DNA of 64,000 nucleotides from Allacma fusca (Eukaryota; Arthropoda; Collembola; Symphypleona; Sminthuridae). Below the pieces are notes generated by a model. That model had not been told where the DNA came from. It was given only the letters and a program-made list of their open reading frames with translations, and did no database searches. The stretch is taken from positions 12,028,001-12,092,000 of the forward strand of contig OX359246.1 in assembly GCA_947179485.1 (NCBI GenBank), in the 5' to 3' direction. Shown here in pieces: positions 447 to 58,256 of this stretch (positions are counted from its first letter, which is position 1; each line of letters starts with the position of its first letter). Made by a program: the position numbers and the translations under genes.

Positions 447-1141
447 TAGTGCATCGCATGGGTTCAGGTCGCACCCGGGTATTTGGGTTCAGGTCCAGGT
501 TCAGGTTCAGTATGGGTTCATTTATTTTGGACCCAATAATTTTGGGTCCTTTCTGGGTACAATATTTTACACCCGTAAAATTGGGTACAGGTTCAGGTTC
601 AGGACCAGGTACAGAGAAAAACCCGTTTTGATTTTACCTGTCAGGACCAGGTGCAACACATAAAAGACCTGAACCTGATCGCAAAAGACCTGAAATGTTT
701 GGGTTCATTGATTGAAAGTTAAAGGCCGGAGAATTCAAGCTTCTCAAATGATTTCCATCGCAAAAGCAATGGCAGGGTGTCCCAGGAACCAGTGAACTTT
801 CATTCTTATGCATTTTAAATATATTTTGTACTACAAATACCCAATTGTACTTTTAATACAAGATAAAATTTAAAAAAGTTTGGATTCTCAAGTACCCAAA
901 CATATTCAGGTCCGGTCCAAAAATACCCGGGTTCAGGTCGTCTTTTGGGTACTTTTTCGGGTTCAGGTACTAATCAGGTGCGGGTACTACAAAAACGCAA
1001 TTGGGTCAGGTTCAGGATCGAAAAATTTGAACCTGTGAAATGGGTACATTTTCAGGTACAGGTTCACGCTTTTGAGGTACCCAAAGTTTGGGTCCAGGTT
1101 CTGGTACAGGTACGACTGTTTTGAACCCATGCGATGCACTA
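447..1141. mobile_element. Word-filled hAT-like MITE (GGTTCAGGT word) in copy A intron
   Basis: Inverted termini start TAGTGCATCGCATGGG at 447 and end with the complement at 1141. A perfect 8-bp target duplication ATCACTGT flanks it (439-446 and 1142-1149). The body is dominated by degenerate copies of GGTTCAGGT and GGTACAGGT at both ends. It sits in the intron between exons 2 and 3 of WSD copy A and is absent from copies B and C. The 8-bp duplication and TAGNG terminus fit the hAT superfamily. It has no coding capacity. Confidence 0.9.
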
Positions 1142-2093
1142 ATCACTGTGCTAAAAATGTAAAATCATATTGTTCAATAGTCTTACCAATTTTGCCATAA
1201 GGATTACAAGTAAAAAAGGCATCAATTATTTCCCCTTCGTCAACAAATTCTTGGGTTGATGTACAAGGGAAGATGGCAATATCGACACCGGGGAAACCGT
1301 CTGAGTCGTCTGCAAAAAACTGTCTTGCCATGAAAACTGGTAAAAGTGTTATTAGCCGAATGCACAAGTCATTGGTGTAGCTGGTTAGATTGTTCGCAAT
1401 GTTTTGAAGATCAGTTTCAATTCGGAAGATTGTTTCATTTGGGAATAAAATGTTGGCGTTGCAAGGGAGTTCTAGGAAACAGGACGTCCTGGGAGTAAGC
1501 AAAACGAAATGAAATTATTTTTCTTTAATTATCTGAATGACTCATTGTGGTTTTAAATAAAAATTAGTATTTTTTCAGAATTGCCATAAAATCCTTACCA
1601 GTGATTACAAATTCCACCAGGGTGGCTTGTGAATGGAAATGTCGACATGACTGGAATGTAATCTGGAGGAGTCGGATTACTTGCCTTAAAAAGACCCTCA
1701 AGAGCTTCACCCATAGCCCCATGCCTGACTGACATGTACTGCACTCCTATTTTGTTTTTTATTGACTTGACTGTGCTATTTTGAAAGATATATTACAAGC
1801 CTGATGAGCTGCCGAATCTGAGTTGCTAAAATAGTTTGTCTTTGGCCAAATCCACATTTGCCGGACAAACTCATAGGGGAATGTAAGGAGAATCCAAAGT
1901 TTTTGTCCGAACAAAATATATATGTACGTAGAGGAAGTAGGGATCCGAAAAGGGGTTTCAAAGAGATTCCGAAGCAGGTTGATACTACTGTGCCCATCAC
2001 AGAGTCCATGGTCAACGCGGAAGATAAGGACAGTTTGACAACCATTCTGTCCAGCTGGATGGGGAAAATTGGATATGACGAGGACCTCCCAAT

Positions 2094-2737
2094 TATAGCT
2101 CCTTATTGAGTGATTACCTTGCGGAACCGTACTCGAACTCGTACTCGAAATCGAAGCATCGAGTATGGACTCCAATCCAAGGTACTCGTACTCGCCACAT
2201 ATACGAGTACTCAGGAAAATACTTGAAATAAGCGACCGAGTTCCAGTTCAGAACCCGAACTTGTTTCATACTCGCGAGTACGGAACTGTAAATACCGAAA
2301 TCCCGTACTCGTACTCGTGCCGTGACTCGAGTCTTCATACTCGAGTATTTAATAATAACAAGACCACAATTGAACAGTGATTTTTTTTAGATTTAGAGTC
2401 GTGACTGGTGGATACAACGATTTTTTGTGATAATTTCATATTAGCGCCTTCGTCTCTTTACTGGAAATTCAAAAGTTTGCAACACTTGTGTGCACGTGTA
2501 CGCGTACTCGTATATTGAGCATGTGGTACTCGAACTCGAACTCGATAACCCTTATGAGTATTTTTATTGGACTCGTACTCGTTTGATACTCGTACTCGTA
2601 AGTATGTGAAAAATCGTTACCCGTACTCGAAACCCATTTCAAGTATCGAGTATTCACAAAAATTTGACCGTACTCGACTCAAACTCGTACTCGTACTCGA
2701 TACTCGCTGGTATACTCGAACTCGATAAGGAGCTATA
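2094..2737. mobile_element. Word-filled hAT-like MITE (ACTCG word) in copy A exon 1
   Basis: The inverted termini are TATAGCTCCTTAT (2094-2106) and ATAAGGAGCTATA (2725-2737). A perfect 8-bp duplication CTCCCAAT lies at 2086-2093 and 2738-2745. The ends are filled with TACTCG/ACTCGA words, with a less repetitive middle. Copies B and C read straight through the site, so they act as empty-site controls. The insertion splits the acyltransferase reading frame. Confidence 0.93.
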
Positions 2738-3280
2738 CTCCCAATGACTTTGGTTTGGCTTCCAAGGATGTTTCGTCAGTTTTGGGAGCACCACTTCCAA
2801 GGAGGACATGTCGCAAGGGGTTGGAAGTTGGAAAGTACTTTCTTAGTCGTATCCCCGAACGTGGTTTTCAAGACTGAATTGTGCGTCAGATTCCCAAAAG
2901 GCATATCCCATGAAACTAGTGTAGTAGGTGGTCAGTTTGTGGTATATTTTCTCTCCGTTTTGATGTTTTATGGTGAAGATACGATCCCGAAACAATTTGC
3001 GAATCCTGGCGATAAGTATTGGCTTGTCAATGACTAAACAGACTGTAGTATTGTGAAGGCCTTGCTCAGGTTGTTCTGTTGTGTACAGGGCGTCATAGCC
3101 CAAATCAAAGGGTTGCAAGTCTGGGCGACATATTTTTACAAATATTATTAGAATATTTCGGTAAAGTACAAATATCAAGAGCACTGGGGTAAAAATGATG
3201 TATAAGGCGAAGGAAATGGTAATAGGAACGAAAATATTCTTCAAATATTTGAAATAGTGGGTTGACATTTTCCAAACCAT

Positions 3281-3600
3281 TTTGTATGCTTGATTGAAAT
3301 TTGGAAGTCGTGTGTTTCGGTACACAATTAACCAGTTGTAGAATGTGGTTGCCACTGATACGCCTTGTTGAAATTGTACCTAGTGTTAACTTCTGCAGAT
3401 GTATTTATTAGAAACATCTACAGTACTCTCGGTGTTACTATAATATTGTTTGCTTTTTATTGTTCTGTGATTGTAACTGTATACCTATCCACCAAGTGTA
3501 AGATTACTTTGAAAACTATTTATTCCATATCCCACGGTTATGCAAATACATTTTACCCCATACCAATTTTCCTGGTTTTTTGAGAATTTTGCCGCATAAA
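3281..3600. other. 5' flank of WSD copy A
   Basis: This stretch is homologous to the upstream regions of copies B (9506-9740) and C (32941-33150), including the remnant of the promoter-proximal AATAAATA...CTGCAGAAG segment on the minus strand. Copy A has lost the TATAAAAG sequence seen in copy B. No separate gene is seen. Confidence 0.5.
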
Positions 3601-5844
3601 TATATGTTAATGATGCTCAGCCCTTCAGCGGTAGGATGTCCATATTATTTGAATCCCAAATCAGGACTTATTCATAAAATAATTTTAACGTATCTAAAAT
3701 TTAAAAAAATATCTAGCAGAGGAAGGTAATTGGCAAGAATACCAGAAAAAATGTTTTATACGAGTCCATATCCGTTGTATTAAGGAAAAAACATTTTGAG
3801 TACAAATGACAATAACTTTTGAACCCGTGAGCTCTTACCGCCAACGTTTGTGAGGCATTTTACATATTTTTTCATGACATTCAACGATTGTTTTTCTGAA
3901 TCAGTTAATGAATTGTCAGTTTCAAAGAGCACAACACATACATCAAACAGTAAATCTGTATCTATTTCGATATCAATTAAAAGCTAATACAGGGGGGAAT
4001 ACATTTGTGAACACCAAAGTTGACAATGCAGTCATTTACTGAATATGACGAAGCTTTTTCCCCATTCAGTCCAGCATATTCGAGTTTTGTAAAACATTTC
4101 TGCTCAGATAATTTTCCCCACATTTATTCAAGTCAACTAAATGAATTTTAAGCCACTTTTCGGGTTCAAATATTTTAAAATATAAGGAAAGCCCTTCGTT
4201 GTTTTTTTTATTGATTGCATTGGACCCCATGGAAAAGTAGGAATTCGAAGAAATTTATCCTGCGTTAAGTTTGCAAGTGATAAAAGTGCTGGCACATTGT
4301 TTACCAAAACTGCTAACTTTTGTGTGACCTAACGTAATTGAAGATGCAATATTCGAATATAAGAAAATTTGTCATACTAATCCAGAATTCAAAATGTTTT
4401 AAAGGATTCAGAAATAGCAACATTTACATACCTGTTTAAAAATTTAGCATTCTTATGATTATCCATGGAAAGGTGCTTCTTTAATTCCGCTATTCAATCA
4501 TTTGCACTGTTTAGAAAAATAGTAAAATCCCGATGTAGTTTGATTTTGTATGAAAGTTACTGATTGAACATATAATTAAGTAATTGACTTGTCCGAATAC
4601 AAGAATTACTATTCTAAAGATTAACAAGAGTATTTATTAAAATGTTAAGAGTTCCGTGTCTTAGTGCATTCTGTTACAAGCGTTAGTTATCATTGCATCT
4701 TAACCAGATCAATGTACTAATACATTACATAAGCTTGCTATGCTACATTTCATAATATTTGCATTACAATTATTACTATGAAAGTAATATTCAATACTTT
4801 TGCTGTTGTCAAATAACTTTGAAATTACAGAAATAGCTAAATAAAATAATTTCACTTTCTTCAAATAAAATTAACAGCAGTAACAATTACCACTGCTCCA
4901 ATGTAGCAAAACCATGTCACTTCACTTATTCTCAACAGTGCACATCATTTCTACCAACGTTTTGCACATTTCATTATTCAATATGCAAACGTTTCGCAAA
5001 TGCAGTCGTTATAGACGCATATATTATTGCGCGCATAGGATAAACCGCAATAGCATCATTAGGCGGTCTCATCAGTTTTCTGCCAATATTTGTACTGTGT
5101 GCTGGATGTCTAGTAGTACATTTAAGTATACATAATTATGCCAACAATAGCGAGGCGAATTCAGCTGAGATTATACTTTTATTGTTTCTGGGGCAACACT
5201 AAACCAACACATTGCATCAAATCAACTTTAAAACAACATTCGTACATATGCATCCGAAAAATCAGGACTTTAAGCCTACTCGTGAGGTCATCATGTGTGC
5301 CTATTGCAAATCAGGACTGATGGACACCCTATTCAGCAGTAGCAGTCCAGTTGTTTGGTCCTGACATTGGGTGATATATTTTGAGTGTTTCTAACGGCTA
5401 CGATGATTCTGAAGTTCTAGTATTAGTGATTATTTGAATTCCATGACTTCGTCATTTATCATTGTAGTATTTTGAGTAAGGAACGTAAATAGACCATATT
5501 ACATGATATACACGACGTTTATGTACCATATGCGTTATAACCAGTTTTGTATTCGTCTAAATACGGGTATTACCTGCTTCCACGGGGGTTATCTATTTTG
5601 TTGTACTACGATATCTCTCCCAAAAGTGGAATGTTCCGGTTTACGACAACTGTTCCGGAATTACGATAACCGTCTCCGGATTACGATAACTGTCCCCAAG
5701 TTCCTGATTACGATAACTGTCCCCAAGTTCCTGATTACGATAACTTTCCCCAAGTTCCGGAATACGATAACTGTCCTCGGATTACGATATCCGTATCAGA
5801 AATATATTTACAATTAGTGGTTTTGGCGATAACTATCATTTGAC

Positions 5845-7785: not shown

Positions 7786-7791
7786 TTTATT
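7786..7791 (-). terminator. Candidate poly(A) signal of WSD copy B
   Basis: AATAAA on the minus strand, 47 bases beyond the stop of copy B. Spacing is plausible, but the region is AT-rich and chance occurrence is possible. Confidence 0.35.
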
Positions 7792-9505: not shown

Positions 9506-9621
9506 TTTGTTTGATTGAGTGAAATTTGGATGTCGTGTATCTCTGTACAAAATTAATGAAGTTGTAGAGTATTGTTGTCTATGAAACTCCTAGTTTAAAT
9601 AGTGCGCAGTCTTAACTTCTG

Positions 9622-9629
9622 CTTTTATA
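9622..9629 (-). promoter_or_regulatory. TATA box of WSD copy B
   Basis: TATAAAAG on the minus strand, about 120 bases upstream of the ATG. It predicts transcription starting near 9595 and a short unspliced leader. Copies A and C carry changed versions (ATACATCT and ATATATCT), so promoter strength may differ between paralogues. Confidence 0.55.
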
Positions 9630-9748
9630 TTTATTAAGAAAATCTACAGAAATCTCGGTTTCATTACTTTGTATTCAAGACTAGGTTTCAAAACTACGTA
9701 TTCCATATCCCACGGTTACACAAACAAATTTTTCGCGTGTACTACCTG

Positions 9749-11157
9749 CAGGGTTGGCAAGTGGCAAGAAATGGCCTGGCCGTTATTGGGTAAAATCCGG
9801 TTCTTACCGGCTTGGTCCAATTGCTTGGGTTGGTATAAAATGGTCGTAGTTAATATTATTCAAATAAATCCACTATCAAATAAAAACCGGTTTTAACCAA
9901 AACGTACCACCGGCTTGGATAATATTGCGCATGCATGAACCAGAGCTGCTTTCAGGTAGTAAAAAATCAAGATCCGCACCTGAACCCGACCCGCACCTGA
10001 AATATCAGGTTAATTTTTTTCGTCGACCCGAACTTGGCCCTCCGGATCCGAGTTAATATCCGCACCTGTCAGGTATTTTTGGATCAGGTATTGCTTGGCT
10101 ACCCGCACCTGAAAAAATACCTGAGGTGCGGATCTCAAAACAAACCCGACCCGAACTTGAACCCGACCCGAACTTGAACCCGAACCTGAACCCGACTTTC
10201 AATTATTTTGTCAGAGGAAACTTATAAACATAAGTTCTATCCTAAGACTTTATTAAAGTAAATATGATTTACAAATGACGTTAAGTTGAAAATGCAAAAA
10301 TTTGTACTAATTTTAAGTGACATGTAGCACAAAGAGAATGGGAACAGCTATTGAAGCTTCCCCAAGCATTCTCTGAGTGATAGCTTTAGAAAGAGACCGC
10401 AGATAAGCGTCATGCTTTTCAATTTTAACGAAGTTAAGGCACAAGTATACACGAAATAGATTCCAAATCGATGATGTCTATGTCTGCTACAACGCTAAGA
10501 CTATATCATGAAATTAATTAGCAAAGTTTGACTGTTTGTTAATTTAATGAATATGGCGGCTCTCACGCATCACTAAATACAACGTGTCTTTCAGCCATGT
10601 GAAGCTACATTAACGTTCAGATCAGCCTGAAAGTTTCATTCACTTGAACTTAAAGTTAAATTATTAAGGTAAAAAAATACTTCCAAAATACCTGAAATTG
10701 CAAGTTCGGGTTCAGGTATTTTGAATTCGTCGTACCGAACCTGTACCTGACATTGAGGTCAGGTATATTTTTCAAACCCGAACTTGATCGTAACCCGACC
10801 TGTAATATCAGGTGCGGATCCTGGATGTACCCGCACTTGACCCGAACCTCAGGTACTTTTTTTTGTAGCTGACCCGAACCCGACCCGAACCCGACCCGAC
10901 GGGTATTTTTCAGGTACTACCTGATACCTGCAAGCAGCTCTGGCATGAACACAGGGTTGCCAAATGGTCAGGAATGGCCTGGTTATTATTGGTTAAAATC
11001 CGGTTCTAACCGGCCCGGACCTGTTGTATAGGTTGGTATTAAATGGTCATAATTAATACTATCCAAATAAGTCCACTGTCCAATAAAAACCGGTTGTTAC
11101 CATTTCTTGCCACTGGCTTGGCCTTTATTGATAAAAGCTGGTTTTTTGCCAACCCTG
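9749..11157. mobile_element. hAT-like element with CAGGGTTGGCAAG termini, carrying a nested element
   Basis: Left end CAGGGTTGGCAAGTGG, right end the complement TTGCCAACCCTG. ACTACCTG precedes the left end (9741-9748). The same 8-mer occurs 3 bp beyond the right end, so the duplication is imperfect. The interior is rich in CCGGTT words. A similar element without the nested insertion lies at 19312-19710 with a perfect 8-bp duplication. This one was later invaded by the element at 9941-10942. Confidence 0.8.
9941..10942. mobile_element. Nested word-filled hAT-like MITE (ACCTGA/CCCGAA words)
   Basis: Termini CAGAGCTGC (9941) and GCAGCTCTG (ending 10942) are flanked by perfect GCATGAAC duplications (9933-9940 and 10943-10950). 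Both ends are made of degenerate ACCTGAACCCGACC words in opposite orientations. The middle is ordinary AT-rich DNA. The nesting shows that it is younger than its host element. Confidence 0.92.
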
Positions 11158-11639: not shown

Positions 11640-11887
11640 GACAACAATATGAGTTCAGAATGAAGAGTTGTGGTGGCACCTCTCGAAAAACCTCCAAATA
11701 TCCCGCCCCAAGAAATCTCATTTACCCAGACTCAAATGAGAGAATTTCAGTGTATCCTAATAACATCTAAAGTCCCCAAGCGATTTCGATGAAAATGGTC
11801 TCAATGAGTTCAGAATAAAGAGTTGTGGCGGTACATCTCAAAAAACCGCCAAATTTCCCACCCTCAAAAATTTATATTACTTGGCAG
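11640..11887. repeat. Roughly 157-bp satellite-like monomers (S repeat)
   Basis: About one and a half tandem monomers on the minus strand. Further pieces occur at 12442-12542, 14719-14816 and 16501-16660. Landmark phrases are GGGTAAATGAGATTTCTT, TTCATTCTGAACTCAATG and TTAGGATACATTGAAATTC. Three transposons have inserted into the S pieces and separate them. Confidence 0.65.
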
Positions 11888-12433
11888 CACTGATCACTCA
11901 CGAGTTTTGAGAGCAAAACTCGCACTCAACTCGCACTCAGAACTCAAAATTTGAGTGCCGAGTGTGAGACCCGCGGCATTCTGAGCAGAACTCAGTTTGT
12001 GAGGTCGAGTGCCATAAAAATAGATTACAGTCATTGAGCGAGAGTGTGAGAGCAGTATTTGGAATTGGAACTCGTATATACCATAAAGGAATACATGTTG
12101 CCCCCATCTACACTTACAAATTTAGTACATTTTGCCTGCATTTAGCGTTTTGATGATTTCGTTTCCGCTAAAAATGCGAGCTATCGTCAGTTCAGTGGAC
12201 GGCTTCAGCGCTATTCTTTGGCGGATTCCTTGAAATGGCGCTAATTTTAATTTGTTACTGAGAGTTCCTGAGTGCGAGTTTGAGTGCAAGATTTCATCAT
12301 GGTCACTCATGAGTGCGAGTGCGAGCTCTTGTTTGATTCGGAATTTGAGTTCCTGAGTGAGTTCTGAGTTCCGTTTAGAGACTCCTAGCGCTCGTGAGTG
12401 CGAGATCGAGTTCAAAAATTTTGCCGATCAGTG
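11888..12433. mobile_element. Word-filled MITE (GAGTGCGAG word)
   Basis: The inverted termini are CACTGATC and GATCAGTG. A perfect 8-bp duplication CTTGGCAG lies at 11880-11887 and 12434-12441. The ends are packed with ACTCGCACTC or GAGTGCGAGT words. The short open frame on the minus strand within it is a by-product of the words. Confidence 0.9.
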
Positions 12434-12542
12434 CTTGGCAGTTAGCAGTTACCATTGCGTTCTCTCATTTGAAGCTGGGTAAATGAGATTTCTTTGGGGC
12501 GGGATATTTGACAGTATTTCGAGATTTACCACCACAACTCAT

Positions 12543-16850: not shown

Positions 16851-17587
16851 TACCTATGACCTGACAATTCCTATGGTTATTCAAAATCGTCCATTAAAAT
16901 CATATATTAAAACTATTAAAATATAGAACTAGAAATAAAGGATACGAACAGTGTTACAACAATTTTTAGATTCGTCTTAATACGGACATTTTCTGTTCCA
17001 TGTTGAGGAGTCTTTTGAACTCTGCAGCAGTACGAAGGACATCAACCAGATACAACTGGCGGAGCAATATTGCAGACTTTTTTATGGGACAGTTCTGGGA
17101 AAGCTAACATTAACTATAATTTTCAGTAGTGTTCGTTTGGCTGATGATACATTAATGGATAACTAGATAGGATTAGCGCGTTTCCATTTGAGAACTAGAC
17201 AAAAACGTGTACAAAATAGTTACGAAAGATGCCAAAGCTTAGAAGACAAATGAAACGTACATATATTGAAACCGGACATTATATCTTTGTATTTATGTAC
17301 CAAGGAAAATAATTTGAAATTATTAACCCATAAAATATTACAAAATACGTTAGGACTCGCGATGGAGACAGCTGCATCTGTGTCTTGCTGAAGTATGACA
17401 TTTTATTATAATATTTCTATATTCTATTTACTAAAGTCTTATTACCAAAAATCCGATTGGCTATTGTTGAAATCCTCTGAAATAAAAAACCTCCCTTTAA
17501 TGGGATTTTTCTGACGCTGCATTCATCTTGCACATCCCAGAAGGCAACGTTATAAGCTCTTACGGGAAGAGAAACGTGTAGTCAAAC

Positions 17588-18449
17588 TAGTGGTCCCGAT
17601 CTTTCAATTCTGAATCAAAACAAACTCTATTAGATTCAATTCAATTCAATTCTGATGCATCATTTTTCGATTCAATTCAAAGCATGAATTGAATCATTTC
17701 ATTCAATTCACTTCATGAATGAAATCACGCGAAATGCCTTGAATCGCAATTTAAATGATTCAGGTGCAACGAATTTGTTTGCATATCACGCTAAAAATGC
17801 AGCTAGTAACGCATCACATTAAAAAGCTCACACATGTTTCTGAGACATTTTTGATTTTTGCTGGGAATCCGACTTATCAATTATTTTGTACATACTAATT
17901 TTTATACATCAATTACTGCAATTTGTTTTTATAGCATTTACTAACGGTCCAATTTAGGTCATAATGTGACAATTAATTAGCAGGATATGCAACTCGAAAT
18001 AGCTAATGTTACAGTCAACTCTCGCTATAAGGGATGCTCATGGGACATTCCGAATTTGTCTCTTATGAGCATAGTGTTATATATTGTGTAAATGGGAATC
18101 GGGACTGTAAATCCAAATCCCTTATATCAAAAGATTCTTAAGCATATCCAATCTAGCAAGAGTTTATACTGTATTGAAAATTTTAGCCATAGTGAAATTG
18201 TTTGTCTTATATTCTTGTATGCTGTTTTATGTAGCCATTATAAAATCCTTAAAATAAAATTTTTATGTCATCACCTTTTACTGTCGGAATGATTTGAATC
18301 ATCATTCGATTCAATTCAGCACGCAGAAATGAATCAAATTGAATCATGTGAATCTTGAATTGAATCGAATCGTTGTATTTCATTCAATTCATAAGTTGAA
18401 TTGAATCAAAACAATTTTTTTGAATTGAATTGAAAGATTGGAACCACTA
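17588..18449. mobile_element. Word-filled hAT-like MITE (AATTGAATC word) with an empty-site paralogue
   Basis: The termini are TAGTGGTCCCGATC (17588) and GATTGGAACCACTA (ending 18449). A perfect 8-bp duplication AGTCAAAC lies at 17580-17587 and 18450-18457. The duplicate block shows a single AGTCAAAC at 36982-36989 with no insertion, a natural empty site. Both ends are filled with AATTGAATC words. The middle contains a fragment resembling the CTCGCTATAAG terminus of the TA element at 22741. Confidence 0.94.
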
Positions 18450-19311
18450 AGTCAAACTTTTATTTCCCAAAATGATTTCCAAACTACTAGAAATTATGTT
18501 TTAATATAATTTTCGTAATCACTGGTAAGGATGACCAGTGAGGGCTAGAACAGTAGTAAAAACTCTGATTTAATTACTCGTTGTCATATTATGACCTGTG
18601 TCACCTTTATCTCGACTCACCTTTGAAACTCCCTGAGAAATCTAACAAAAAGTATAAAGAACTCAAGAATAGGAATTAACTCAAGGTAAAACTCCCAGAG
18701 ATTATCAAGAGAGGAGCACATAAAGTTAGATTTATAATCAGATTCCTATAATAGTTTGTTGATTGCTGTGAGAACACGGATATTCCATTTGGTGTATATT
18801 CTTCGATAACGTATGTTTTGACACACACTCTATATATATATATGTATATGCTATTAGTAGCGTACGGCCATTCCAAGTCTACATCAGACTCTCGCGGAGA
18901 TGATTCCCAAGCAAAAGTAAGCTAATTCCAGCTTAATATGTTATTTCCTTGCTCAAGGCAATGATGCCGATGTGAATTGGAAAAGCAAGTTTTTGTACTT
19001 GTTATTCTCTGAGAATGCTTTGGCCACAAACAAACAGAGAGAAGGAGTAAGATTGATTACCGTACCTGCTCACAAGCTCATCCTCAGCATAATATTTACA
19101 TACAAGAAGTCCTTATGTAAGCAGTTAATTCTCTACCAGTGTCTCTTGGGACAGAAGGAAGCCAGAAAGGCCATTAAAATACAATGGATTTAAGCCTCAA
19201 AAATGTCAAGCTATTCCGAATGATACAGTGGATTGTCAGCAGTCTTGGAGCAAGTCTCACATCCGAAGGATTAAATATTGCAAGTCTCGTGAACTTCAAG
19301 AGAGTCTTCGC

Positions 19312-19710
19312 CAGGGTTGGCAAGTGGCAAGAAATGGCCTGACCGTTATTGGTTAAAATCCGGTTCTTACCGGCTTGGTCCAACTGCTTGGATTGGTATA
19401 AAATGGTCGTAATTAATATTATCCAAATAAATCCACTGTCCAATAAAAACCGGTTTTAACCAAAACGTACCACCGGCTTGGCTAATATTAAGCATGCACG
19501 TACACAGGGTTGCCAAGTGGTCATAAATGGCCTGGTTATTATCGGTTAAAATTCGGTTCTAACCGGTCCGGACCTGTTGTATAGGTTGGTATAAAATGGT
19601 CATAATTAATACTATCCAAATAAGTCCACTGTCCAATAAAAACCGGTTGTTACCATTTCTTGCCACTGGTTTGGCCTTTATTGATAAAAGCCGGTATTTT
19701 GCCAACCCTG
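19312..19710. mobile_element. hAT-like dimer element (CAGGGTTGG termini) with an empty-site paralogue
   Basis: The left end is CAGGGTTGGCAAG and the right end CCAACCCTG. A perfect 8-bp duplication GTCTTCGC lies at 19304-19311 and 19711-19718. The paralogous site at about 37845 has only GTCTTCAC followed directly by the flank. Two similar units of roughly 195 bp lie in tandem (19312 and about 19506). CCGGTT words recur. It sits in the probable leader intron of the truncated Sec14 copy. Confidence 0.92.
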
Positions 19711-19745
19711 GTCTTCGCAAATAATTACTAATAGGAAGGATCACT

Positions 19746-20850: not shown

Positions 20851-20859
20851 TGTATCTTG

Positions 20860-26086: not shown

Positions 26087-26127
26087 TAAGTGTCCCTGGA
26101 TTACGATATCCGTCCCAGAAATATATT

Positions 26128-29226: not shown

Positions 29227-32200
29227 TCAATCCTCTTGCCTTCCGAGTACATTCAGTTCCGACAGAAACTTGGATGAAAGGATCCCAGGCGGTATTTGAG
29301 TTCCAACGACATTTTCAGCCATATTAAAAACCACTCGTTGCTGATTATTTACTCCCCATGATGAAATCGTCATTCCTTCGGAAGCAAGGATTAGTTAATC
29401 ACTGTTCTAAGAATTTAAAATCATTTGGTTCAATAGTCTTACCAATTTTGCCATAAGGATTACAAGTAAAAAAGGCATCAATTATTTCCCCTTCTTCAAC
29501 AAATTCTTGGGTTGATGTACAAGGGAAGATGGCAATATCGACACCTGGGAAACCGTCTGAGTCATCTGCAAAAAACTGTCTTGCCATGGAAACTGGTAAA
29601 AGTGTTATTAGTCGAATGCACAAGTCATTGGTGTAGCTGGTTAGATTGTTCTTAATGTTCTCAAGAGCAGCTTCAATTCGGAAGATTCTGTCATTTGGGG
29701 ATAAAGTGTTGGCGTTGCAAGGGAGGTCTAGGAAACAGGACCTCCTGGGGGTAACAAAACAAAACGAGATTATTTTTGGAAAGTTGCTTTATCTTCTCTC
29801 TGTCACATTTTTAATTTTTTGCAAAACAACTTTTCTGGCCTTGAAAAGCAACTACCTCTGCTATCACTCGAGGGTAAAAAAATGATTTTGCATGTGACTT
29901 TTAAACGAAAGCTCCGATTGGAAATTTTAAGGGCTTAAAGTCGATTGGAGACTTCAAATAATGTGCGTGAATATTTTTAATGTTGCACCTGAAGGGGTTC
30001 TAGAGTTATTGGCATATATCAACAATTTTTAGGCATCGTTGCTATCTAAGACCTATCATAGCTACCATTTAATTAGCATTGCAAAAATTCTAAGGGTGTT
30101 CTTCACTAGCGATTTCCTTAAAATTTGGCACAAAGGTCCCTTAATATTATGTAAATCTATGTCCAAAAGGGCATGTTGCGCAAACGAAGGGTTCAAACTG
30201 TATAAATTAATTTTCGTTAAAGTAGACCTAGTGATTACCGTAGTTAGCGTAAGATTATAGAAACATTGATCGTTTGAAGCAAAAAAAATAATAGGATTCT
30301 TTGAAACATTAATCTTTTGAAAGAAAAAATAATAATGATCACATTATTTGAAACATTGATCTTTTCAAACAAAAAAATAATAAAACAGTTAACGAATAAA
30401 TCGGCTAAAAAGAAATTTTGGAACGGAAAAGTCTTTCATATCATAACGATACTACAACTACTGCTATGACAGAGGAAATTACAAATCCACTCACATTGAA
30501 GTGAGCGTTTGGTGTGTGCTAACTAGCAGTACATACCGCAGAACCCAACATCTATCTCTCTCTCACCTCCGCGACAGACAGGGGCACCGGGCTTTGAAGC
30601 CATTCCTCAACGATGGTAGTTGAATACATTCAGTGATGGACTACTCCTGTCCAGAGCTGCGCTCAAGTTCAAGTAGACCATGAGTATTTCAAATAATGGT
30701 CAAGTGTGAATACCATTTTTATATTTCTATTTTGAAAAAGACTTGAGTGTTGAGACTTGAAAGTTCAAGTTGGGGTCATGATCAAGTCATGGTCAAGTCA
30801 AGAGTTGTCCCGGGTGTATTTGGCCAGGTTCAAGTTACGCAAAACGTACTTGAATACTTGACCCTGAATTTTCAAGTAATTGTCTGACAATGAACCGTCA
30901 AGTTTAAGACCGACTGAAAAATATACTTGACAATCAGGGTCAATTCTAGTTCAGGGTCAATTCTGGGATTTACTTGACGTGAGCGCAGCTCTGCTCCTGT
31001 CTGCCTATATTTTAATAAATACATGAATACATCTCATTTTTGTTAAAATGTTTAAGTCCAGCATTGTATTGGAATAAAATAATACATACATGGTTTAATT
31101 ACGGCATTATACTTGCAGATGTATCTATATGTAACAAATACTAATTGTAAAAGAAATAAATAAACTTAGCAGCCAAAAAGCTTAAAAGTAAAGTTGCTTT
31201 TCCGCCCTTAAAAGTAATAAACAAGTTATGGTACAATAATTATTTTATAGTACAAAAATATGCACGAACAATGAAATTATTTATTGAAAAAGCAACGCGA
31301 TCACACTTTTTAATTCACACAAATATTTTGTAATATAATATGTTATTACAGATTTCATTTTCTTTCGTATGGTGTTCCTAAAATGCATAAAACAATAGTT
31401 TGTGTAATTTTATCGTAAAATGAAGTTCTGCTACAGCCACTATACATTTATCTACATCCAACGTTTGCCTTACAAGAAAAAAACCAAATTTTGTAAGCGA
31501 AAAGAAAAGGTTCATTGCCGAAGTGATCCTCTGCTCCAAATGCCAACACGCTTAAATAATTATAAAATTCTAAAGTTACCTGCACCAGATTATCACATAT
31601 TGCGTAATAATCGCAGAAGGCAAAGAAAAACATATTACAAAAACATGTGTGAGAAAAAGTTCTTCATTAAATCATGTGTGATCGCGTTGCTTTTTCAATA
31701 AATAATTTCATTGTTCCTGCATATTTTTGTACTATAAAATAATTATTGTACCATAACTTGTTTATTACTTTTAAGGGCGGAAAAGCAACTTTACTTTTAA
31801 GCTTTTTGGCTGCTAATTTTATTTCTTTAATTATCTGGATGAATTATTGTGGTTTTAAATAGAACAAAGTATTTTTTATGTATTGCCATAAAATCCTTAC
31901 CAGTGATTACAAACTCCACCAGGGTGGCTTGTGAATGGAAATGTCGACATAACTGGTATGTAATCTGGAGGAGTCTGATTGATTGCCTTAAAAAGACCCT
32001 CAAGGGCTGCACCTATAGCCCCATGCATGACTGACATATACTGAACTCCTATTTTGTTTTTTATATTTTTGACCGTGCTATTTTGAAAATAGTCAGATAT
32101 ATCACAAGCGTGATGAGCTGTGGAATCTGGGTTGCTAAAATAGCTTGTCTTTGGCAAAATCCACATTTGCTGGACAAACTCGTAGGGTAATGACAGGATA

Positions 32201-33473: not shown

Positions 33474-33811
33474 GCCTGCTATGACCTGACAATTCCTATG
33501 GTGAATCAAAGTCGTCCATTAATTAAAACCGTAATTATATTAAAACAATATACAACAAGAAATAAATTAAGCCAACAGTGTTATAACCCACTAAACCCCC
33601 TAAACAACTCTATGATACAGGTGGCACAGTGCACCCCCCTGATTGTATCCAGTATGGTAAAGTATACATATGGACTGTACCCTGTACCCCCTCAGTTTTG
33701 ACAATCAATGTCAAGCTCCGAAATTAGAAGCTCGAAATTTACCAAAATCAGACATTCATGAGATCAGGTAGTTAACTAAAATGTGATTATTACATGAGCG
33801 TGTGCCCAACC

Positions 33812-34645
33812 GGGTTACATGTCTACTGCCACCCAAGCAACTGCCATAAGGACAACTGCCACGCGGAGAACTGCCACAAGGACAACTGCCACAATAATAA
33901 TTGCCACCCGCTTCGAAAACCCTGAACGTACCAACTGCCACATTACCTACTGCCACTTTACCATCTGCCAACTGAAACCATATGTATACTGAAGCTCCGG
34001 AAATGCAGTGTAAGCTCCGAAAATGATAGTAAGCTCCGGAAATGATAGTAAGCTCCGGAAATGATAGTAAGCTCCGAAAATGATAGTAAGCTTCGGAAAT
34101 GATAGTAAGTCTCGGAAATGATAGTAAGCTCCGGAAATGCAGTGTAAGCTCCGGAAATGATAGTAAGCTCCGAAAATGATAGTAAGTCCGGAAATGATAG
34201 TAAGCTCCGGAAATGATAGTAAGCTCCAAAAATGCAGTGTAAGCTCCGAAAATGCAGTGTAAGCTCCGAAAATGCAGCGTAAGCTCCGAAAATGCAGTGT
34301 AAGCTCCGAAAATGCATAGTAAGCTCCGGAAATGATAGTAAGCTCCGGAAATGATAGTAAGCTCCGGAAATGCATAGTAAGCTCCGGAAATGATAGTAAG
34401 CTTCGAAAATGCTGTGTAAGCTCTGAAAATGCAGTGTAAGCTCCGGAAATGATAGAAAGCATTAGTTCGGAGAAGTGGCAGTAGGTATGTGTGGCAGATG
34501 GTAAAAGTGGCAGTTGCCCAAGTGGCAGCAGGTAAGTGTGGCAGATGGTAAAGTGGCAGTTTATTGTGGCAGTTGTCCTTGCGGCAGTTCTCCGCGTGGC
34601 AGTTGCTCTTGTGGCAGTTGCTTGGGTGGCAGTGGACCGGACACG
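33812..34645. mobile_element. Word-filled element (ACTGCCAC word) enclosing a minisatellite
   Basis: Flanked by perfect GCCCAACC duplications (33804-33811 and 34646-34653). The ends are imperfect inverted repeats built from many ACTGCCAC words (left) and GTGGCAGT words (right), sharing phrases such as CCACCCAAGCAACTGCC. The centre is a 19/20-bp minisatellite (33990-34460). The long minus-strand frames here arise from the repeats. Confidence 0.82.
33990..34460. repeat. Two-type minisatellite, 19 and 20 bp
   Basis: About 24 tandem units of the forms TAAGCTCCGGAAATGATAG (19 bp) and TAAGCTCCGAAAATGCAGTG (20 bp), arranged in runs and with hybrid units (GCATAG). The pattern suggests unequal exchange between two unit types. 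Confidence 0.85.
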
Positions 34646-35091
34646 GCCCAACCGTGGCAGAAAAACTGAAAACGTTTCGCCCCTATCAGTTCAGTGTATC
34701 ATGTCACATCAGTCGTCTTTGGTATTTCATTCAAACAACGGAATTACTTGTCATACCAAGTCATATATTGGTAGTAACTTTCCTAAACCCGAACTTGATC
34801 TGATACTTGAATATCAGGTCCATAAATCTTGCGAACCGAACTTGGATTTGAATTATACTTTAACCTCACAACTTTGTAGTATGAAGCCGCAAAAACACTC
34901 CAACGGGTGGAGCTAAGATTTTCAATTTCCATCGTATTTATTAAATTCAGATTCGGGTTCACTCATGGTTTTTTCCTTGTGTTACAGTCTCACCGGACAA
35001 TTTACTTCAATAGTTTTTCAAAAATGATGAAAAATTAGAAGACAATTTTTAAGCACGATGATTTACAGAATACACAACGGTCACTCCATAT

Positions 35092-36008
35092 CAGAGCTTA
35101 TCTGCCGGGGACAGGGACGTCCCGTCGGGACACTGGACGGACCGGGACGTCCCCGGGGACAAAATAATTGTCCCCATGTCGTATTCGGGACGGGACGGGG
35201 ACAAAAAAATTGGCCCCATTATATTCGGGACAGGACGGGGACAAAAAAAAATGTCCCCATTATATCAGGGACGGGACGGGGACAACAAAAATTGTCCCCA
35301 CTATATTCGGGACGGGATGGGGGCAAAAAAAATTGTCCTCATTGTATTCCGGACGGGACACTGTTTGGTCCTGTATATAACGGGACGGGACGAGCAAGCA
35401 TAACAGAACAAGGATAACGTTTCAGCTTTAATTCTCTTGAGTAAACTATTCTGTGAACACTATTTTACCGAATGCAAGACATTCTATTTTAGGTGGTAGA
35501 AAATGAATCTTGTTGATCAAAAAGTTAAGAAAGAATCTTGGAGCCACGATTCTATAAATGCGTTTTTTATGTCTTTAGTACAAATATTTTTTGTACGAAA
35601 TTTTCCTCATGTTCTGATTTTCGGTATGACTGTTTTTAGTAATTATCGGGACGGTGCAGGAATTTTATTCACATGCCCCAATTTTCGGGACCGGGGACAA
35701 TGTTTTTTAAACATTTTGGGGGCGGGACGGGGACAAGCTTTTTGTCCCCATGTCCCGACTTTCGGGACGGGACCGCGGACAACGTTTTTTAAAAATTTTG
35801 GGGACGGGACGGGGACAACGTCTTTGTCCCCATGTCCCGACTTTCGGGACGGGACCGGGGACAATGTTTTTATAATTTTTTGGGGACGGGACGGGGACAT
35901 GGTTTTTGTCACCGTGTCCCGATTGTCTGGACGGGACTGGGGACTAAGGTTTTTAAAAAATATCGGGACGGGGACGGGACAAGAATTTTGTCCCCAGCAA
36001 AAGCTCTG
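35092..36008. mobile_element. Word-filled hAT-like MITE (GGGACGGGGACA word)
   Basis: The left end is CAGAGCTTATCTGCCGGGGA and the right end GTCCCCAGCAAAAGCTCTG. A perfect 8-bp duplication CTCCATAT lies at 35084-35091 and 36009-36016. Degenerate GGGACGGGGACA words occupy both ends around an AT-rich centre. The several overlapping open frames on both strands are word artefacts. Confidence 0.93.
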
Positions 36009-36126
36009 CTCCATATGAAGGTGAGCTCCAGCTCCTGTGCATATCTTGGCAGGCATGGTTTCTAGAATGCGTGTTGCAGAAGTGCGAACAATCGAGGGAG
36101 AAGAACGCACAAAGGAAGCAAACGTT

Positions 36127-48033: not shown

Positions 48034-51000
48034 ATGGAAACCATTGAGAATTGTGTGGACGCTGCCATTGCAGAGGTAATAAGTAATACCAGTTTATTTA
48101 AGTAAACTTTACAAATGTAAAATATCTTAACTATTTATTTAACTCCTGAATATTCTGTAATTCCATGTTTAGCTGAGGACAAATATCAAAGATATCATTC
48201 ACGAAGACAGCTTGTACGGAGATGAGTTCTATCTTTTGAGATGGTTGAAAGGTAAGTAAAAAATATTATGTTGTCTATAGTCTTTAATTCGCATGGAATT
48301 GATCCATTTTGAAGCTAATTGGTTTGACTCCTATCCTTAACAGTTAGCAACATGAAAGTGAAAAAGGCGGAAAAATATCTAAGAAGTGTAAGAGGCAGTA
48401 AAAGTTTTATAGACGTACTTAGCACTAAAAAAATATTTAATGCAGGGAAAAAGCATGTGGATATTAATTGTGATACTTATTGTCTGAGAACTTATCTAAT
48501 GATTATAATTTCAAACGTTTCAAATTTTCAGACGGCAAAATGGCGTAAAGAGCTAGATGTGTCTTCAATGTATAACGGCTCCTTTCCTGACGGCTGGCTG
48601 GAATCCATGCCAATTTATGCGGATGCTGTGACAAACAGTGGGTCTTTAGGTAAATCTAAAATAAAAATAAAGGCATTTTTTTAAGACATACATACATTGG
48701 ATTACGACAAATGATGGGTATATTGTGATATAAAATGCTTTGTTTCATTTGAAACATTTATATTAAAATTATGTGAAGTATGTGAATTGTTGGAAATTAC
48801 TGGATTTTCCTTTAAAACAACAGCTGCCTCTGTTCAAGCTGGACTCGTGGACATTAGAGGGATTCTAGAAGAAAGGGGAAGGGCAAATGTAGTTAAGCTT
48901 CTGGTTCAGGCATTTGTGCAAGCCGAACGGGTATTGGTAGAGCTGAACAGAAACAGGTTTGGGGGTGAATTTCTCACAGAAAACTCCGTGGAGGGAGGAA
49001 CGATGATTCTTGATATGAACAACTTCCAAGCTCGACACTTGGGATCTTTACAAGGTGAATATATTCATGTGTACAATACATAATTTAAGTTCACTCCTTA
49101 TAACCCATTAGAATTCAATGAGGACAGTTAACAAAATCTCCTGCTTTGAAATTGTACCACCTTCATAAAATCTCACAAGTGTAAATATAATGGTTATCAA
49201 ATTTTAACCGACAATGAGTTTTAATCATTATAGAAAACTAAAGTCCGTATTATTTCGCCTGGGTCCGGCCGCGAGATGTGACCAAATCTCAATTCTAATG
49301 CTAATAATGAGACCACCTATACTCCTTTCCCAATTCAAAATGAACATGCTTATAACCATTTTGGATTTTCATATTTCGGCGTGAAATTGAAAGCAACGTA
49401 GGAGTCAAATAGACGATAGTCTTTCCTATTCAATTATCGAGTCCCAGTTTTGAAATTTTCTTTCACATTTTCGCTAAATAATTTTAACTATTATGATCAG
49501 TATCCAAAAGAGATTTAGTGAAGACTTTTTAACATTTTCAAAATATTAGGTCATTCTCAGGCTCAAGTAGATACTTCTAATATTTTGTAATTGGTAACCA
49601 AATTTTCTTTTAATTACAGACAGTACAAACTTTACACAAGCTAGACCACATTTTTGAGAGAGAAAAAATGTTGATATAAATGATTATCTCTCTAGCACTG
49701 CTTATCCAACTGAGTCAGCCTTGGTAAATTCCTGCTTCAATCGTAGCACGTTTTAGTTAAGAGGTATTGCCATCTCCAAAATTTGTCTGTGTATCGTCGA
49801 AATCCGAAAATCGAAGTTTCTTGTACGAATTAGAACGTAAAATTTTAATACAGGAATGAGTGCTATTAGTGTTGAGATTTTGAGATTTGATGATCTCCAG
49901 AGACGGAACCCAGGTTACCTGTCCCAAACTTCAGTGAAGGTTCCGACTTGCATATGTCCAAATACATCAAACTCAATTTGATATTTGATCCGCTGTGTTC
50001 ATCCAAAAATCTCTTCTTGACAATTGCGTTGCACGTTTGCCATATCTGAATAATTATTACATTGTGACCAATGTCGTTAATTTCTGTACATTTAAGCTAA
50101 ATTTACATAAAAATTAAATATATTCATGCTCATATTGTTTTGTATCCTCTAGTTTTACAGACTGTTGGAGAGGTTTGCAAAATCATAGTCAAGTACTTCC
50201 CTGTTCTGGGTGCCAGGATCATCGTTTTAAACTGTAAGCATTCAAATCCAATATTTTTGACATGAATATACAGTGCGAAAATATAGATATTTACATTTGT
50301 CATTTTCAGAAAATAAAACTATCAATTAGGTAAAGTATGTTTGAACCGATTCTAGAATTAGTTCTGGGACAAAAATTCAGGAACTGCTGAATTGTAAGAT
50401 ATCGATGAAATCATGAAATATAAAATTTTAAAGATGATAGTTTAATTAAAACTTCCTAACCGAGAACGTTTATGCAACTTTAGCAATAAGATCAAGTCAA
50501 ATCTACAAAATATTGAAGCGAAAACAATCTAGATCTAAACGCTTCAATTACTACGAAAGGACTGAAAATTTCAAAGTTTCCTGCACACATTTAACCAGGC
50601 ACACTACAATGTCCGGGAATTGGGGGCAATGACTTTTTTAGGGGGACAATGTCCCCCATGTTCCCCCTATTTCCGGACTGCCTGCATTTAACTATTTAAT
50701 CTACATCTGCCTCAATCAAAGAAAACCAAATTAGTGAAACGTAGAAAAGGTTGTAACAAAACGCTTTTAGGGTATTTAGGGATTAGGGATCCACAATTTC
50801 CGGCAGCCCCTGAATTATTAAACGTAACAATACAAATATCTCAATTACGCAAGATTCAAATTCTCACTGACAGGAATGTTCAGACAGGAATCACACTACT
50901 ATGTATAATTTTGTCGTGTAGACAATCCGGAGAATCCGGTACTAAATATTTCCTGTTGGTTTTAAACGAATTAATACGCTAAAAAAATAGAGATCCTCAT

Positions 51001-55290: not shown

Positions 55291-55295
55291 AAAGT

Positions 55296-56547: not shown

Positions 56548-56551
56548 AAGT

Positions 56552-57410
56552 GAAAATGTTAACCGTAGATTATTGGCACCCAAAGTTGTCAACAACCATC
56601 TCATGTCATCAAGTTACATAACATTAATTAATTGATTAAAATTATTCAGACAATGAGAAGTTTTACTAGTTAATTCTTACCTCTAAATATTCTTGCACAT
56701 ATTTATCAGTCGTGTCCTCAAACACTGAATTAATAGTAGAAAACTAATTCTGCATCACAAATAACTAATAACGTTAATTTCAACGTTTTTTTACGCGCTT
56801 TCTGAATCGTGCCTTAATCTTGGCAGCAATATCAGTAGATTGTTTTCCATGTATATGCAATGTACAATATCATAACGGTCACTGAAAATATTGTTGCACG
56901 CATGAACACTTCGCAGACGTAACATCCGTAATATAATCCTGAGTGCAGAAAGCAATATTAGACGACCCGAACTGAAAGTGTATAAGATGATATTTAACTT
57001 CGTTTTCCAGATTAAAGGATGACTTTAAGGAAGACTTTAGTATCTGCCATGTTTACAGAATTGAGACTCAGTTTGGAAAGGAAAATGGAGAAAAATGCAT
57101 GGTAAGCTGGAACAATTCTTGCGACCAGCTCACACTGTATATAATTTAAGCGTAGAAACTCTGCTGCAACGTCACTGTTATCCGTGCATGCAACAATTAC
57201 GGGTATTCATGACATGGTCATAAAACACAAAGTCTAATAGCTTTATATTGCTCGCTCTTGCCGTGGCCTTATGTCATTATAGTACCTCAAAACTTTAGTA
57301 CTTTTGTCAGATCTTGACTCTTCTCAATTTCCTTTTACATTTTTCCATTTTTGATCCATCGTTTCTATTTAGCATTAACAATATTTGGAAAAAAAATTTC
57401 TGGACTTAGT
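56552..57410. other. Gene-free spacer
   Basis: AT-rich sequence between the probable solo LTR and the CGATAT element. No conserved frame or repeat was recognised. Confidence 0.4.
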
Positions 57411-57418
57411 ATAAATAC

Positions 57419-58256
57419 TAGGCATGTTCATAACGATATACCGATACGATATTATCGTTCATATCGTACATTTTTTAGAAACGATATATCACGATATTTA
57501 TCGGGGTTTCCCGACGATATATCGACACATGATTATATCGTAAATTCGCGAGTAATAACAAGAATTGTGCATTTTTTTGGCAAAAATGCGAGCAAAACTA
57601 GCGGACAAAATCATTTTACGACTTTGGAAAATCATACCACACCAAATTCGGTCTAAAGATATTCAAGATGTTTTTTTTATGCTTGATCCATTTAACAGTC
57701 GACATTAATGAGCTGGCCGTCATTCTAATACACAGGGTTTAGCATTTTTGCGAATAAAGATGCGCAACTATAATTTTGGTTTTTTGCTATTTTGTTGACT
57801 TTAGTTTGAAAACTTTGAAAACGTTAGAAACTTTAATGACTTAAGTTCCCTAATAAGGTTATCCGAATTCGGGGGTCAGTTATCAGTGTATTGATGAACA
57901 GAAATTCTATGGTGTAATTATTATGTGTAGTTTTAATGTTTTCTTACTGACGCTATTATTATCTTTGAAATGCTTCAAGTTGTACATATTTTCAACTCAA
58001 TGCCTTTTAGACTCGTGTATTTGGAATAAAATGTAATCTGTGCTAATTTGGGCTGAAAATTTGGTTCCTAAGGAGCCTTAGTAATAATAATTAGCTTGTA
58101 CACGAAATTAAAGTTCTGTTAATTTCCGTTAAATAATGCCAGAAGCCACAACGTGATATATCTTTATATCGTTCCTCGATATCGTTATCGGTAATTTTTC
58201 ACAGAACGATAACGATATGAACGATATTTTAAAATCGAACGATATGAACATGCCTA
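57419..58256. mobile_element. Word-filled hAT-like MITE (CGATAT word)
   Basis: The termini are TAGGCATGTTCATA and TATGAACATGCCTA. A perfect 8-bp duplication ATAAATAC lies at 57411-57418 and 58257-58264. CGATAT/ATATCG words crowd both ends (about 57430-57540 and 58150-58240). The centre is AT-rich non-coding DNA. A diverged left end of the same family is at 52763. Confidence 0.93.

What the first reader, a model, noticed from the sequence alone, without database searches (positions are those of the whole stretch)
447..58256. A class of hAT-like elements built from short repeated words
Eleven insertions carry perfect 8-bp target duplications: 447 ATCACTGT, 2094 CTCCCAAT, 9941 GCATGAAC, 11888 CTTGGCAG, 17588 AGTCAAAC, 19312 GTCTTCGC, 30652 CTCCTGTC, 33812 GCCCAACC, 35092 CTCCATAT, 50596 CATTTAAC, 57419 ATAAATAC. 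Most bodies are a single 5-10 bp word repeated degenerately near both ends around an AT-rich centre, and each family has its own word. hAT transposases such as maize Ac bind many short subterminal motifs, so the words may be expanded transposase-binding sites. I infer that selection for transposase recruitment, or slippage, drives word expansion. The window may document a family-wide diversification of recognition words.
Basis: partly seen in the sequence, partly recalled or inferred. Interest (0 to 1): 0.92.

Follow-up and report, generated by a model that had tools for sequence, protein, structure and literature searches.

The report
Springtail jumping genes with repeated words
The window, from a springtail genome, holds several families of small jumping genes that probably cannot move by themselves; most carry many copies of their own short DNA word near both ends, probably the docking sites for the enzyme that moves them, so one genome may show how such docking words change.

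Summary
All 11 eight-base duplications are present. Nine flank elements with hAT-type inverted tips, and eight of those nine have their own word far above chance. Exceptions: 33812 has no terminal inverted repeat and is foldback-like; 50596 has no word; 19312's word is weak; 30652 multiplied as passenger of a larger repeat. The genome is probably Allacma fusca. Families 447, 9941, 2094 and 57419 have tens of copies with fixed ends; duplications are perfect in 29/30 and 28/30 loci checked for 447 and 9941. Other loci gave seven further word-bearing elements. First words start at bp 12-16 in 23 of 28 ends (2.8 expected). Five families share an RRGT core, sense-oriented at bp 14-15 in 8 of 10 ends (0.8 expected), where Hermes has its BED-bound AAGT. 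Copies often differ by whole word units, pointing to slippage. A relative of 447 retains a decayed, sub-threshold hAT transposase C-terminus. Most likely these are non-autonomous hAT elements with expanded subterminal transposase-binding repeats: a known principle, unusually expanded and diverse here. No autonomous partner was found (that search did not complete); binding is untested.

The parts
439..1149 (.). hAT element 447-1141 (695 bp) with TSD ATCACTGT; tip TAGTGCATCGCATGGGTT, words GGTTCA/TCAGGT/ACCCAA
   Evidence: 40 full-length genome copies; TSD in 29 of 30 loci
2086..2745 (.). hAT element 2094-2737 (644 bp) with TSD CTCCCAAT; tip TATAGCTCCTTAT, word CGAGTA/ACTCGA
   Evidence: 40 of 40 listed copies full-length
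9933..10950 (.). hAT element 9941-10942 (1002 bp) with TSD GCATGAAC; tip CAGAGCTGCTT, words ACCCGA/ACCTGA; inserted in a 19312-type copy
   Evidence: empty site exact
11880..12441 (.). hAT element 11888-12433 (546 bp) with TSD CTTGGCAG; tip CACTGATC (8 bp only), words CACTCA/GAGTGC/ACTCGC
   Evidence: genome copies not searched
17580..18457 (.). hAT element 17588-18449 (862 bp) with TSD AGTCAAAC; tip TAGTGGT(C/T)CC, word GAATTGAA/CRATTCA
   Evidence: genome search not answered
19304..19718 (.). hAT element 19312-19710 (399 bp) with TSD GTCTTCGC; 12-bp tip CAGGGTTGGCAA, internal second head at 19505, weak word AACCGG
   Evidence: genome copies not searched
9749..11157 (.). second 399-bp copy of the 19312 family (94.2% identical, no gaps) interrupted by element 9941; its own 8-bp flanks do not match (ACTACCTG, ACTACTAC)
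30644..31001 (.). hAT element 30652-30993 (342 bp) with TSD CTCCTGTC; tip CAGAGCTGCGCTCA, word ACTTGA; passenger of a larger repeat
29773..31828 (.). larger dispersed repeat that carries element 30652 through the genome (Helitron-like is a guess)
33804..34653 (.). 33812-34645: foldback-like repeat, 73-bp inverted arms at 33825-33897 and 34561-34633 built of CAACTGCCACAAGGA, central 19-bp satellite 33992-34460; no terminal inverted repeat, so not accepted as hAT
35084..36016 (.). hAT element 35092-36008 (917 bp) with TSD CTCCATAT; tip CAGAGCTT, words CGGGAC/GGGGACA
   Evidence: relative L080:640-1418 with its own TSD ATGTATGT; genome search not answered
50588..50692 (.). 89-bp candidate 50596-50684, TSD CATTTAAC, 6-bp tip CAGGCA, no word
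57411..58264 (.). hAT element 57419-58256 (838 bp) with TSD ATAAATAC; tip TAGGCATGTTCAT, word ACGATA/ATATCG
   Evidence: 28 of 44 rows full-length

Best explanation
Nine of the eleven features are non-autonomous hAT transposons of the springtail Allacma fusca. Each family is presumably moved in trans by a hAT transposase that cuts at the short tips and makes the 8-bp duplication (shown here: tips and duplications; for 447, 9941, 2094 and 57419 also fixed-end copies; for 9941 an exact empty site). The repeated words are subterminal binding sites for the BED finger of the cognate transposase; the first lies at about bp 12-16, others stack behind it (position shown; binding inferred from Hermes, Herves and Ac). 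Word number changes by slippage or unequal exchange, adding or losing whole units (shown between 9941 copies). Ends that still recruit transposase are kept, so the ends vary less than the middle (shown for 9941, though not word by word). Different families use different words because they answer to different transposases (inferred).
For: TSD plus tips. Independent insertions ending at the tips. Exact empty site for 9941 inside a 399-bp 19312-type copy. Further elements outside the window with words. First word at bp 12-16 in 23 of 28 ends of 14 elements, 2.8 expected from random starts inside the same end zones, maximum 10 in 5000 simulations (19312 and 33812 not counted). Sense RRGT at bp 14 or 15 in 8 of 10 ends of five families, 0.78 expected from their own end zones, 0 of 20000 simulations reach it. 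Hermes BED binds AAG(T/C) with its first site around bp 15-18 (PMC10368747, passages and section 7). CRATTCA in 17588, 15 against 0.8 expected, matches the core of the Herves transposase motif C(G/A)ATTCAT (PMC3143072, passages). Indels of 6 bp or more in the ends of 9941 subfamilies are 6, 11, 17 or 23 bp of word sequence; variable sites 21/565 in ends against 40/437 in the middle, Fisher p 0.0005. hAT C-terminus remnant in L024:2508-3654, whose tips and words resemble 447: only Pfam match PF05699, E 0.046.
Against: No intact hAT transposase was seen; the PF05699 genome search did not complete. The PF05699 match is below its curated cut-off and rests on two frames set side by side (0.16 for the first frame alone, no match for the second alone). 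Words are not more conserved than other end positions. A letter-shuffle test does not show that the families' top words are more alike than chance (5 of 28 close pairs, null mean 3.5, reached in 752 of 3000), so the RRGT grouping is post hoc. The two ends of an element share tips, so ends are not independent. The exact known words are mostly not enriched: Hermes AAG(T/C) in 30652 is 16 with a shuffle maximum of 16, Herves CRATTCAT in 17588 is 2 with maximum 2, Ac AAACGG is not raised in any of ten window elements. 11888's right end lacks the early word. Two of nine further elements outside the window have no clear hexamer word.
Confidence: 0.72

Rival explanations
1. The elements are hAT MITEs but the words are passive: slippage inflated a short stretch next to the tips, and the arrays have no role in recruiting transposase.
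For: Word-unit indels; in the 2094 family 13 of the 25 copies whose length is not 644 differ by a multiple of 6; within the ends words are no more conserved than non-words.
Against: Ends are more conserved than the middle; first words at a fixed distance from the tip in families with different tips; both ends carry the same word, in mixed orientations and uneven spacing, which plain slippage does not predict; core and position match Hermes.
Confidence: 0.16
2. The words bind a host factor (a zinc-finger repressor, replication or chromatin protein) rather than the transposase, and each family is a decoy or target for such a factor.
For: Inference only: arrays of near-identical short sites, a word of its own for most families.
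Against: No host protein identified; tip-proximal position fits transposase sites better.
Confidence: 0.06
3. Several families are carried by other elements and their duplications are inherited, so they are not independently mobile.
For: True for 30652: 19 of 19 other loci extend into a shared larger repeat.
Against: For 447 (12 of 30 loci compared) and 9941 (30 of 30) similarity stops within 8 bases of the tips, the window's own copy aside, and the TSDs differ between loci apart from one pair, L002 and L003, that also shares a flank.
Confidence: 0.06

Closest known systems
Maize Ac/Ds (hAT)
   Same: 8-bp TSD, 11-bp tips, AAACGG hexamers in the terminal 200 bp at either end bound cooperatively by the transposase, non-autonomous derivatives sharing tips and hexamers (PMC3260210, passages).
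   Different: Ac uses one word, and only three copies are reported as required; here word arrays are much longer, and several families in one genome each use another word. AAACGG itself is not raised in the window's elements.
Hermes (hAT)
   Same: BED sites AAG(T/C) concentrated near the tips, 17 and 14 sites, first one at about bp 15; quasi-palindromic pair and mixed orientation (PMC10368747, passages and section 7).
   Different: Hermes encodes its transposase and has a single short site; here RRGT variants (AGGT, GAGT, GGGT, AAGT) characterise different families and arrays fill much of the element.
Herves (hAT)
   Same: Repeated C(G/A)ATTCAT motif at both ends, sufficient for transposase binding as a tetramer (PMC3143072, passages); 17588 carries CRATTCA 15 times.
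   Different: Full 8-mer not clearly enriched in 17588; no transposase known for 17588; tips of Herves not compared.
Tol2 (hAT)
   Same: A highly repetitive subterminal sequence is reported essential for transposition (only the title of the 2006 Genetics paper was seen, in reference lists; the paper is not held; the AAGTA word is recalled).
   Different: Fish element with its own transposase; relation to these families not tested.
Coral CMITEs
   Same: MITEs with an unusually conserved inner region, some in tandem arrays (PMC2872659, abstract and outline).
   Different: Related to piggyBac-like elements, not hAT.

Membership tests
hAT superfamily (non-autonomous) | 8-bp target site duplication | tested here: met
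   11 of 11 in the window; 29 of 30 and 28 of 30 loci for 447 and 9941
hAT superfamily (non-autonomous) | short terminal inverted repeats with hAT-like tips | tested here: met
   nine of eleven; 33812 none, 50596 only 6 bp
hAT superfamily (non-autonomous) | transposition by a hAT transposase with RNase H-like and C-terminal dimerisation domains | tested here: inconclusive
   decayed PF05699-like piece in the 447 relative L024:2508-3654, E 0.046, below cut-off; genome search for PF05699 did not complete
hAT superfamily (non-autonomous) | MITE behaviour: many copies with identical ends and no coding capacity | tested here: met
   copies: 447, 9941, 2094, 57419 and L024n; other families not searched or unanswered; coding capacity judged from size and from ten short stretches scanned, not exhaustively
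hAT with subterminal transposase-binding repeats (Ac, Hermes, Herves type) | short motif repeated inside both ends, close to the tips | tested here: met
   eight window families and seven outside elements; position control
hAT with subterminal transposase-binding repeats (Ac, Hermes, Herves type) | motif bound by the cognate BED/N-terminal domain | not testable with these tools
   needs protein and DNA binding assays
hAT with subterminal transposase-binding repeats (Ac, Hermes, Herves type) | motif required for transposition | not testable with these tools
   needs an excision or integration assay
Foldback-like elements (considered for 33812) | long inverted arms made of short tandem repeats | tested here: met
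   73-bp arms 94.5% identical plus 22-bp arms 100%, 15-bp repeats
   low density elsewhere in the window; genome-wide not tested

The most novel reading that the evidence does not exclude
A single springtail genome holds a radiation of hAT families in which the BED recognition word turns over faster than the tips. Families with the same tip use different word arrays (CAGAGCT: ACCCGA, ACTTGA, CGGGAC; TAGGCATG: ACGATA, TCGAGA; TAGTGC: GGTTCA, GGTACA). Each array is spread and homogenised by slippage, and five families step through RRGT variants around the Hermes site. This would be a natural record of co-evolution between DNA-binding domain and site, with non-autonomous elements under selection to out-recruit one another by longer arrays.
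Probability: 0.38. Interest if true: 0.75.

Novelty: new variant of a known kind. Interest (0 to 1): 0.57.

Why it matters
hAT transposases are known to read short repeated sites, but how a transposase changes its site is hard to study because the well-studied families come from distant hosts. Here many families live in one genome, some with copies identical over 1 kb, so tips, words and, once found, BED fingers could be compared pair by pair. It would also show whether non-autonomous elements win by stacking extra docking sites.

Tried and rejected
Considered and rejected: (1) words as ordinary satellites (one search shows them rare outside the elements in the window); (2) all eleven as one class (33812 lacks terminal inverted repeats, 50596 lacks words); (3) 30652 as an independently spreading family; (4) transposase remnants in the window or in the first 80 loci by a strict motif scan: none in 361 kb, a weak negative, since it missed the frameshifted piece in L024; (5) closeness of words shown by a letter shuffle: not significant; (6) Pfam, PDB and protein-database matches for the BED-like 114-aa reading frame of the nested element in L081: no zf-BED match, a weak zf-C2H2_aberr match (E 0.078), no PDB match below E 0.66, and no homologue; (7) Rfam and tRNA scans of the window: nothing. 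The consensus step mixed orientations and is not used beyond its TSD count and the note that the copies in the majority orientation differ from it by 0-4 of 695 bases.

Never answered: the family search PF05699, asked many times, always 'busy'; one request for 35092, one for 33812 and three for 17588 likewise.

Full report
Source. The window is C8:12028001-12092000 of a 392.74-Mb assembly in 91 contigs. A window reading frame is 83% identical over 49% of its length to an Allacma fusca protein, the only hit, and the published A. fusca assembly is 392.8 Mb in 95 scaffolds (PMC10427803, passages). I take the organism to be this springtail. The words 'repeat' and 'transpos' do not occur in that paper's main text.

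Checking the observation. Nine elements have matched tips. A scan requiring an 8-bp TSD and 9 of 10 matched tip bases gave 9 hits, against 0-2 in each of ten simulated windows; the same scan with TSDs of 7 bp gave 7 hits and of 9 bp gave 1. The looser 7-of-8 scan gave 16 hits, seven of them off the list, against 1-8 in simulations, so tips of 7-8 bp alone are weak evidence for 11888. In the 81 fetched loci the numbers of distinct structures for TSD lengths 6, 7, 8, 9, 10 were 26, 2, 18, 0, 2, variants of one family counted apart. The peak at 8 stands out from 7 and 9; the count at 6 is high and I did not sort chance from other elements there.

Words. For eight of the nine hAT-like elements the top hexamer exceeds every one of 200 shuffles: 447 GGTTCA 15, 2094 CGAGTA 24, 9941 ACCTGA 17 (with ACCCGA 17), 11888 CACTCA 10, 17588 ATTCAA 18, 30652 ACTTGA 15, 35092 CGGGAC 26, 57419 ATATCG 14. 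19312 reaches 6 against a null maximum of 5; 50596 shows nothing; 33812 has strong repeats but no terminal inverted repeats. The words lie mostly in the outer 35% at each side, except in the short 30652. Neighbouring same-strand words are most often 6 bp apart in 447, 2094, 9941, 11888 and 30652.

Genome copies. 447: 40 full-length copies at 99-100% (40 candidates scored out of 1251); TSD perfect in 29 of 30 loci, at 28 distinct sites, L002 and L003 sharing TSD and flank. One copy sits inside another copy of itself (L022). 9941: 41 rows, all 1-1002, 23 of 30 fetched loci identical over 1002 bp, TSD perfect and different in 28 of 30. Similarity ends within 8 bases of the tips (12 of the 30 loci of 447 and all 30 of 9941 were examined, apart from the window's own copy). 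2094: 40 of 40 rows 1-644 at 93-100%; 15 are 644 bp, and of the other 25 lengths 13 differ from 644 by a multiple of 6 (632, 638, 650, 656) and 12 do not (634, 636, 642, 643, 645, 646, 652, 660). 57419: 28 of 44 rows 1-838 at 87-100%, four of them close together on C8. 30652: the 19 loci other than the window's own all align beyond the element into a larger repeat, 29773-31828, so its shared TSD is inherited. These searches score only the best 40 candidates, so counts are lower bounds.

Empty sites. Removing 9941 and one TSD copy from its surroundings leaves 399 bp that align without gaps, 94.2% identical, to element 19312; that interrupted copy's own flanks do not form a perfect TSD. In L081 a 2180-bp element with TSD ATAGGAAC and tips TAGGCCTCCGC sits in a copy of the L024 element whose uninterrupted form has ATAGGAAC once at the same place.

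Elements outside the window. The flanks of loci L001-L080, fetched for 447, 9941 and 30652, hold seven further elements with 8-bp TSD and matched tips. L081, fetched because a copy of the L024 element broke off there, holds two more, one nested in the other. Seven of these nine exceed all 200 shuffles: L024:2508-3654 CAGGTA 18 (tips like 447), L080:640-1418 CGGGAC 22 (tips and word like 35092), L073:811-1380 TCGAGA 15, L008:912-1453 GAAGGC 14, L027:255-1195 AGTTCA 18, L029:2273-3645 GGGTAC 16, and L081:280-2459 ACATGA 32. Two do not: L056:928-2519 (1 of 200 shuffles reaches it) and the nested L081:1238-2352 (67 of 200), although the latter has AACGR 19 times against a null maximum of 15. The scan also found 21062-21821 in the window, 8-bp tips without a word (37 of 200). 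The L024 element has 30 rows of 48 spanning 1 or 2 to 1147.

Position and core. Among 14 word-bearing elements the first of the top words begins at bp 12-16 in 23 of 28 ends; random starts inside the same end zones would give 2.8, at most 10 in 5000 simulations. In 447, 2094, 9941, 11888 and 30652 a sense RRGT stands at bp 14 or 15 in 8 of 10 ends, against 2.8% for random places in the window and 0.78 of 10 expected from the elements' own end zones. Both ends of L029 and of L024 also show GGGT at bp 14; the other seven outside elements, whose words are not of this kind, do not. The two ends of one element share their tips and are not independent. In Hermes the BED site is AAG(T/C), and from the passages I read its first site stands at about bp 15-18 (PMC10368747). 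17588 carries CRATTCA 15 times (0.8 expected), the core of the Herves motif (PMC3143072). Against this: Hermes AAG(T/C) itself is not above the shuffle maximum in 30652, the full Herves 8-mer is not above it in 17588, and AAACGG is raised nowhere in the ten window elements. The idea that five words are variants of one scaffold came after seeing them, and a letter-shuffle test of top-word similarity is not significant.

Tips against words. Elements with the same tip group carry different words: CAGAGCT[GT] (9941, 30652, 35092), TAGGCATG (57419, L073), TAGTGC (447, L024). 447 and the L024 element favour GGTTCA (15 against 6 GGTACA) and GGTACA (15 against 10 GGTTCA) respectively, as expected if words spread within an array.

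How arrays change. In eight distinct sequences of the 9941 family, indels of 6 bp or more in the ends are 6, 11, 17 and 23 bp of word sequence, some of them shared by several copies and so not separate events; indels in the middle are 1-9 bp and unrelated to the word; three small non-word insertions in one copy's right end and single-base deletions there also occur. Variable sites are 21 of 565 in the ends and 40 of 437 in the middle (p 0.0005; zone borders set by me). Inside the ends words and non-words vary alike (8 of 229, 13 of 336). So the ends are constrained or homogenised, but selection on the words themselves is not shown.

Link to a transposase. The middle of the L024 element encodes, in two frames, a stretch like the hAT C-terminus. 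Its only Pfam match is PF05699 Dimer_Tnp_hAT (E 0.046 with the frames side by side, 0.16 for the first frame alone, none for the second alone; cut-off not reached). The nested element in L081 has a reading frame of 114 aa over a GT-AG intron (1567-2033) with C-x4-C and H-x4-H in a BED-like setting by eye; no database supports this. No intact transposase was found; the genome search for PF05699 did not complete.

Judgement. The class is real, reaches beyond the window, and is of hAT type. Words as expanded subterminal transposase sites is the best reading; slippage is seen, selection on words is not. Paper searches that could have shown an earlier report of word-filled hAT families (listings and abstract starts seen) gave none; that is a limited, open-licence library.

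Noticed in passing
29773-31828: A dispersed repeat of about 2 kb, seen at least in part in all 20 loci fetched for 30652, carries that hAT element; its 31154-31314 and 31676-31828 stretches are inverted copies. In the flanks of the nine copies printed I saw no obvious TSD; possibly Helitron-like.
   Followed up: partly
8468-9589, 31897-33063 and 2843-3379, minus strand: Long reading frames that look alike by eye; the first matches the wax ester synthase/DGAT catalytic domain just under the cut-off, the second has no Pfam match, so probably a local gene family.
   Followed up: partly
25616-26096, 5675-5776, 22276-22335: A minisatellite of about 27 bp (TCCTGATTACGATAACTGTCCCCAAGT), 17.8 copies in the first array; the third is a 20-bp variant.
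   Followed up: no
9570-9744 and 11475-11649: Inverted pair, 93% identical, bracketing the nest of 9941 inside a 19312-type copy.
   Followed up: no
19312-19710 and 9749-11157: The 19312 family has two heads (CAGGGTTG at the start and about 193 bp further in) and one tail, in both copies.
   Followed up: partly
L081:1238-2352: hAT-like element nested in another, with AACGR words (six AAACGG, the Ac word) and a two-exon, 114-aa BED-like reading frame without a catalytic part; no homologue found. Possibly a stand-alone DNA-binding protein, or just a decayed transposase start.
   Followed up: partly
L029:2721-2990: A 90-aa frame inside the L029 element matches PF17237 Emr1 (E 0.00021, below the cut-off); meaning unknown.
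   Followed up: no
L022; G000:C8:50361535-50363587: A 447 copy inserted in another 447 copy, and two 9941 copies lying 59 bp apart.
   Followed up: no
15210-15324 and 15865-16007: Two imperfect tandem arrays of about 32 bp that by eye share a TCATTTTGCTTTTA-like core on opposite strands.
   Followed up: no
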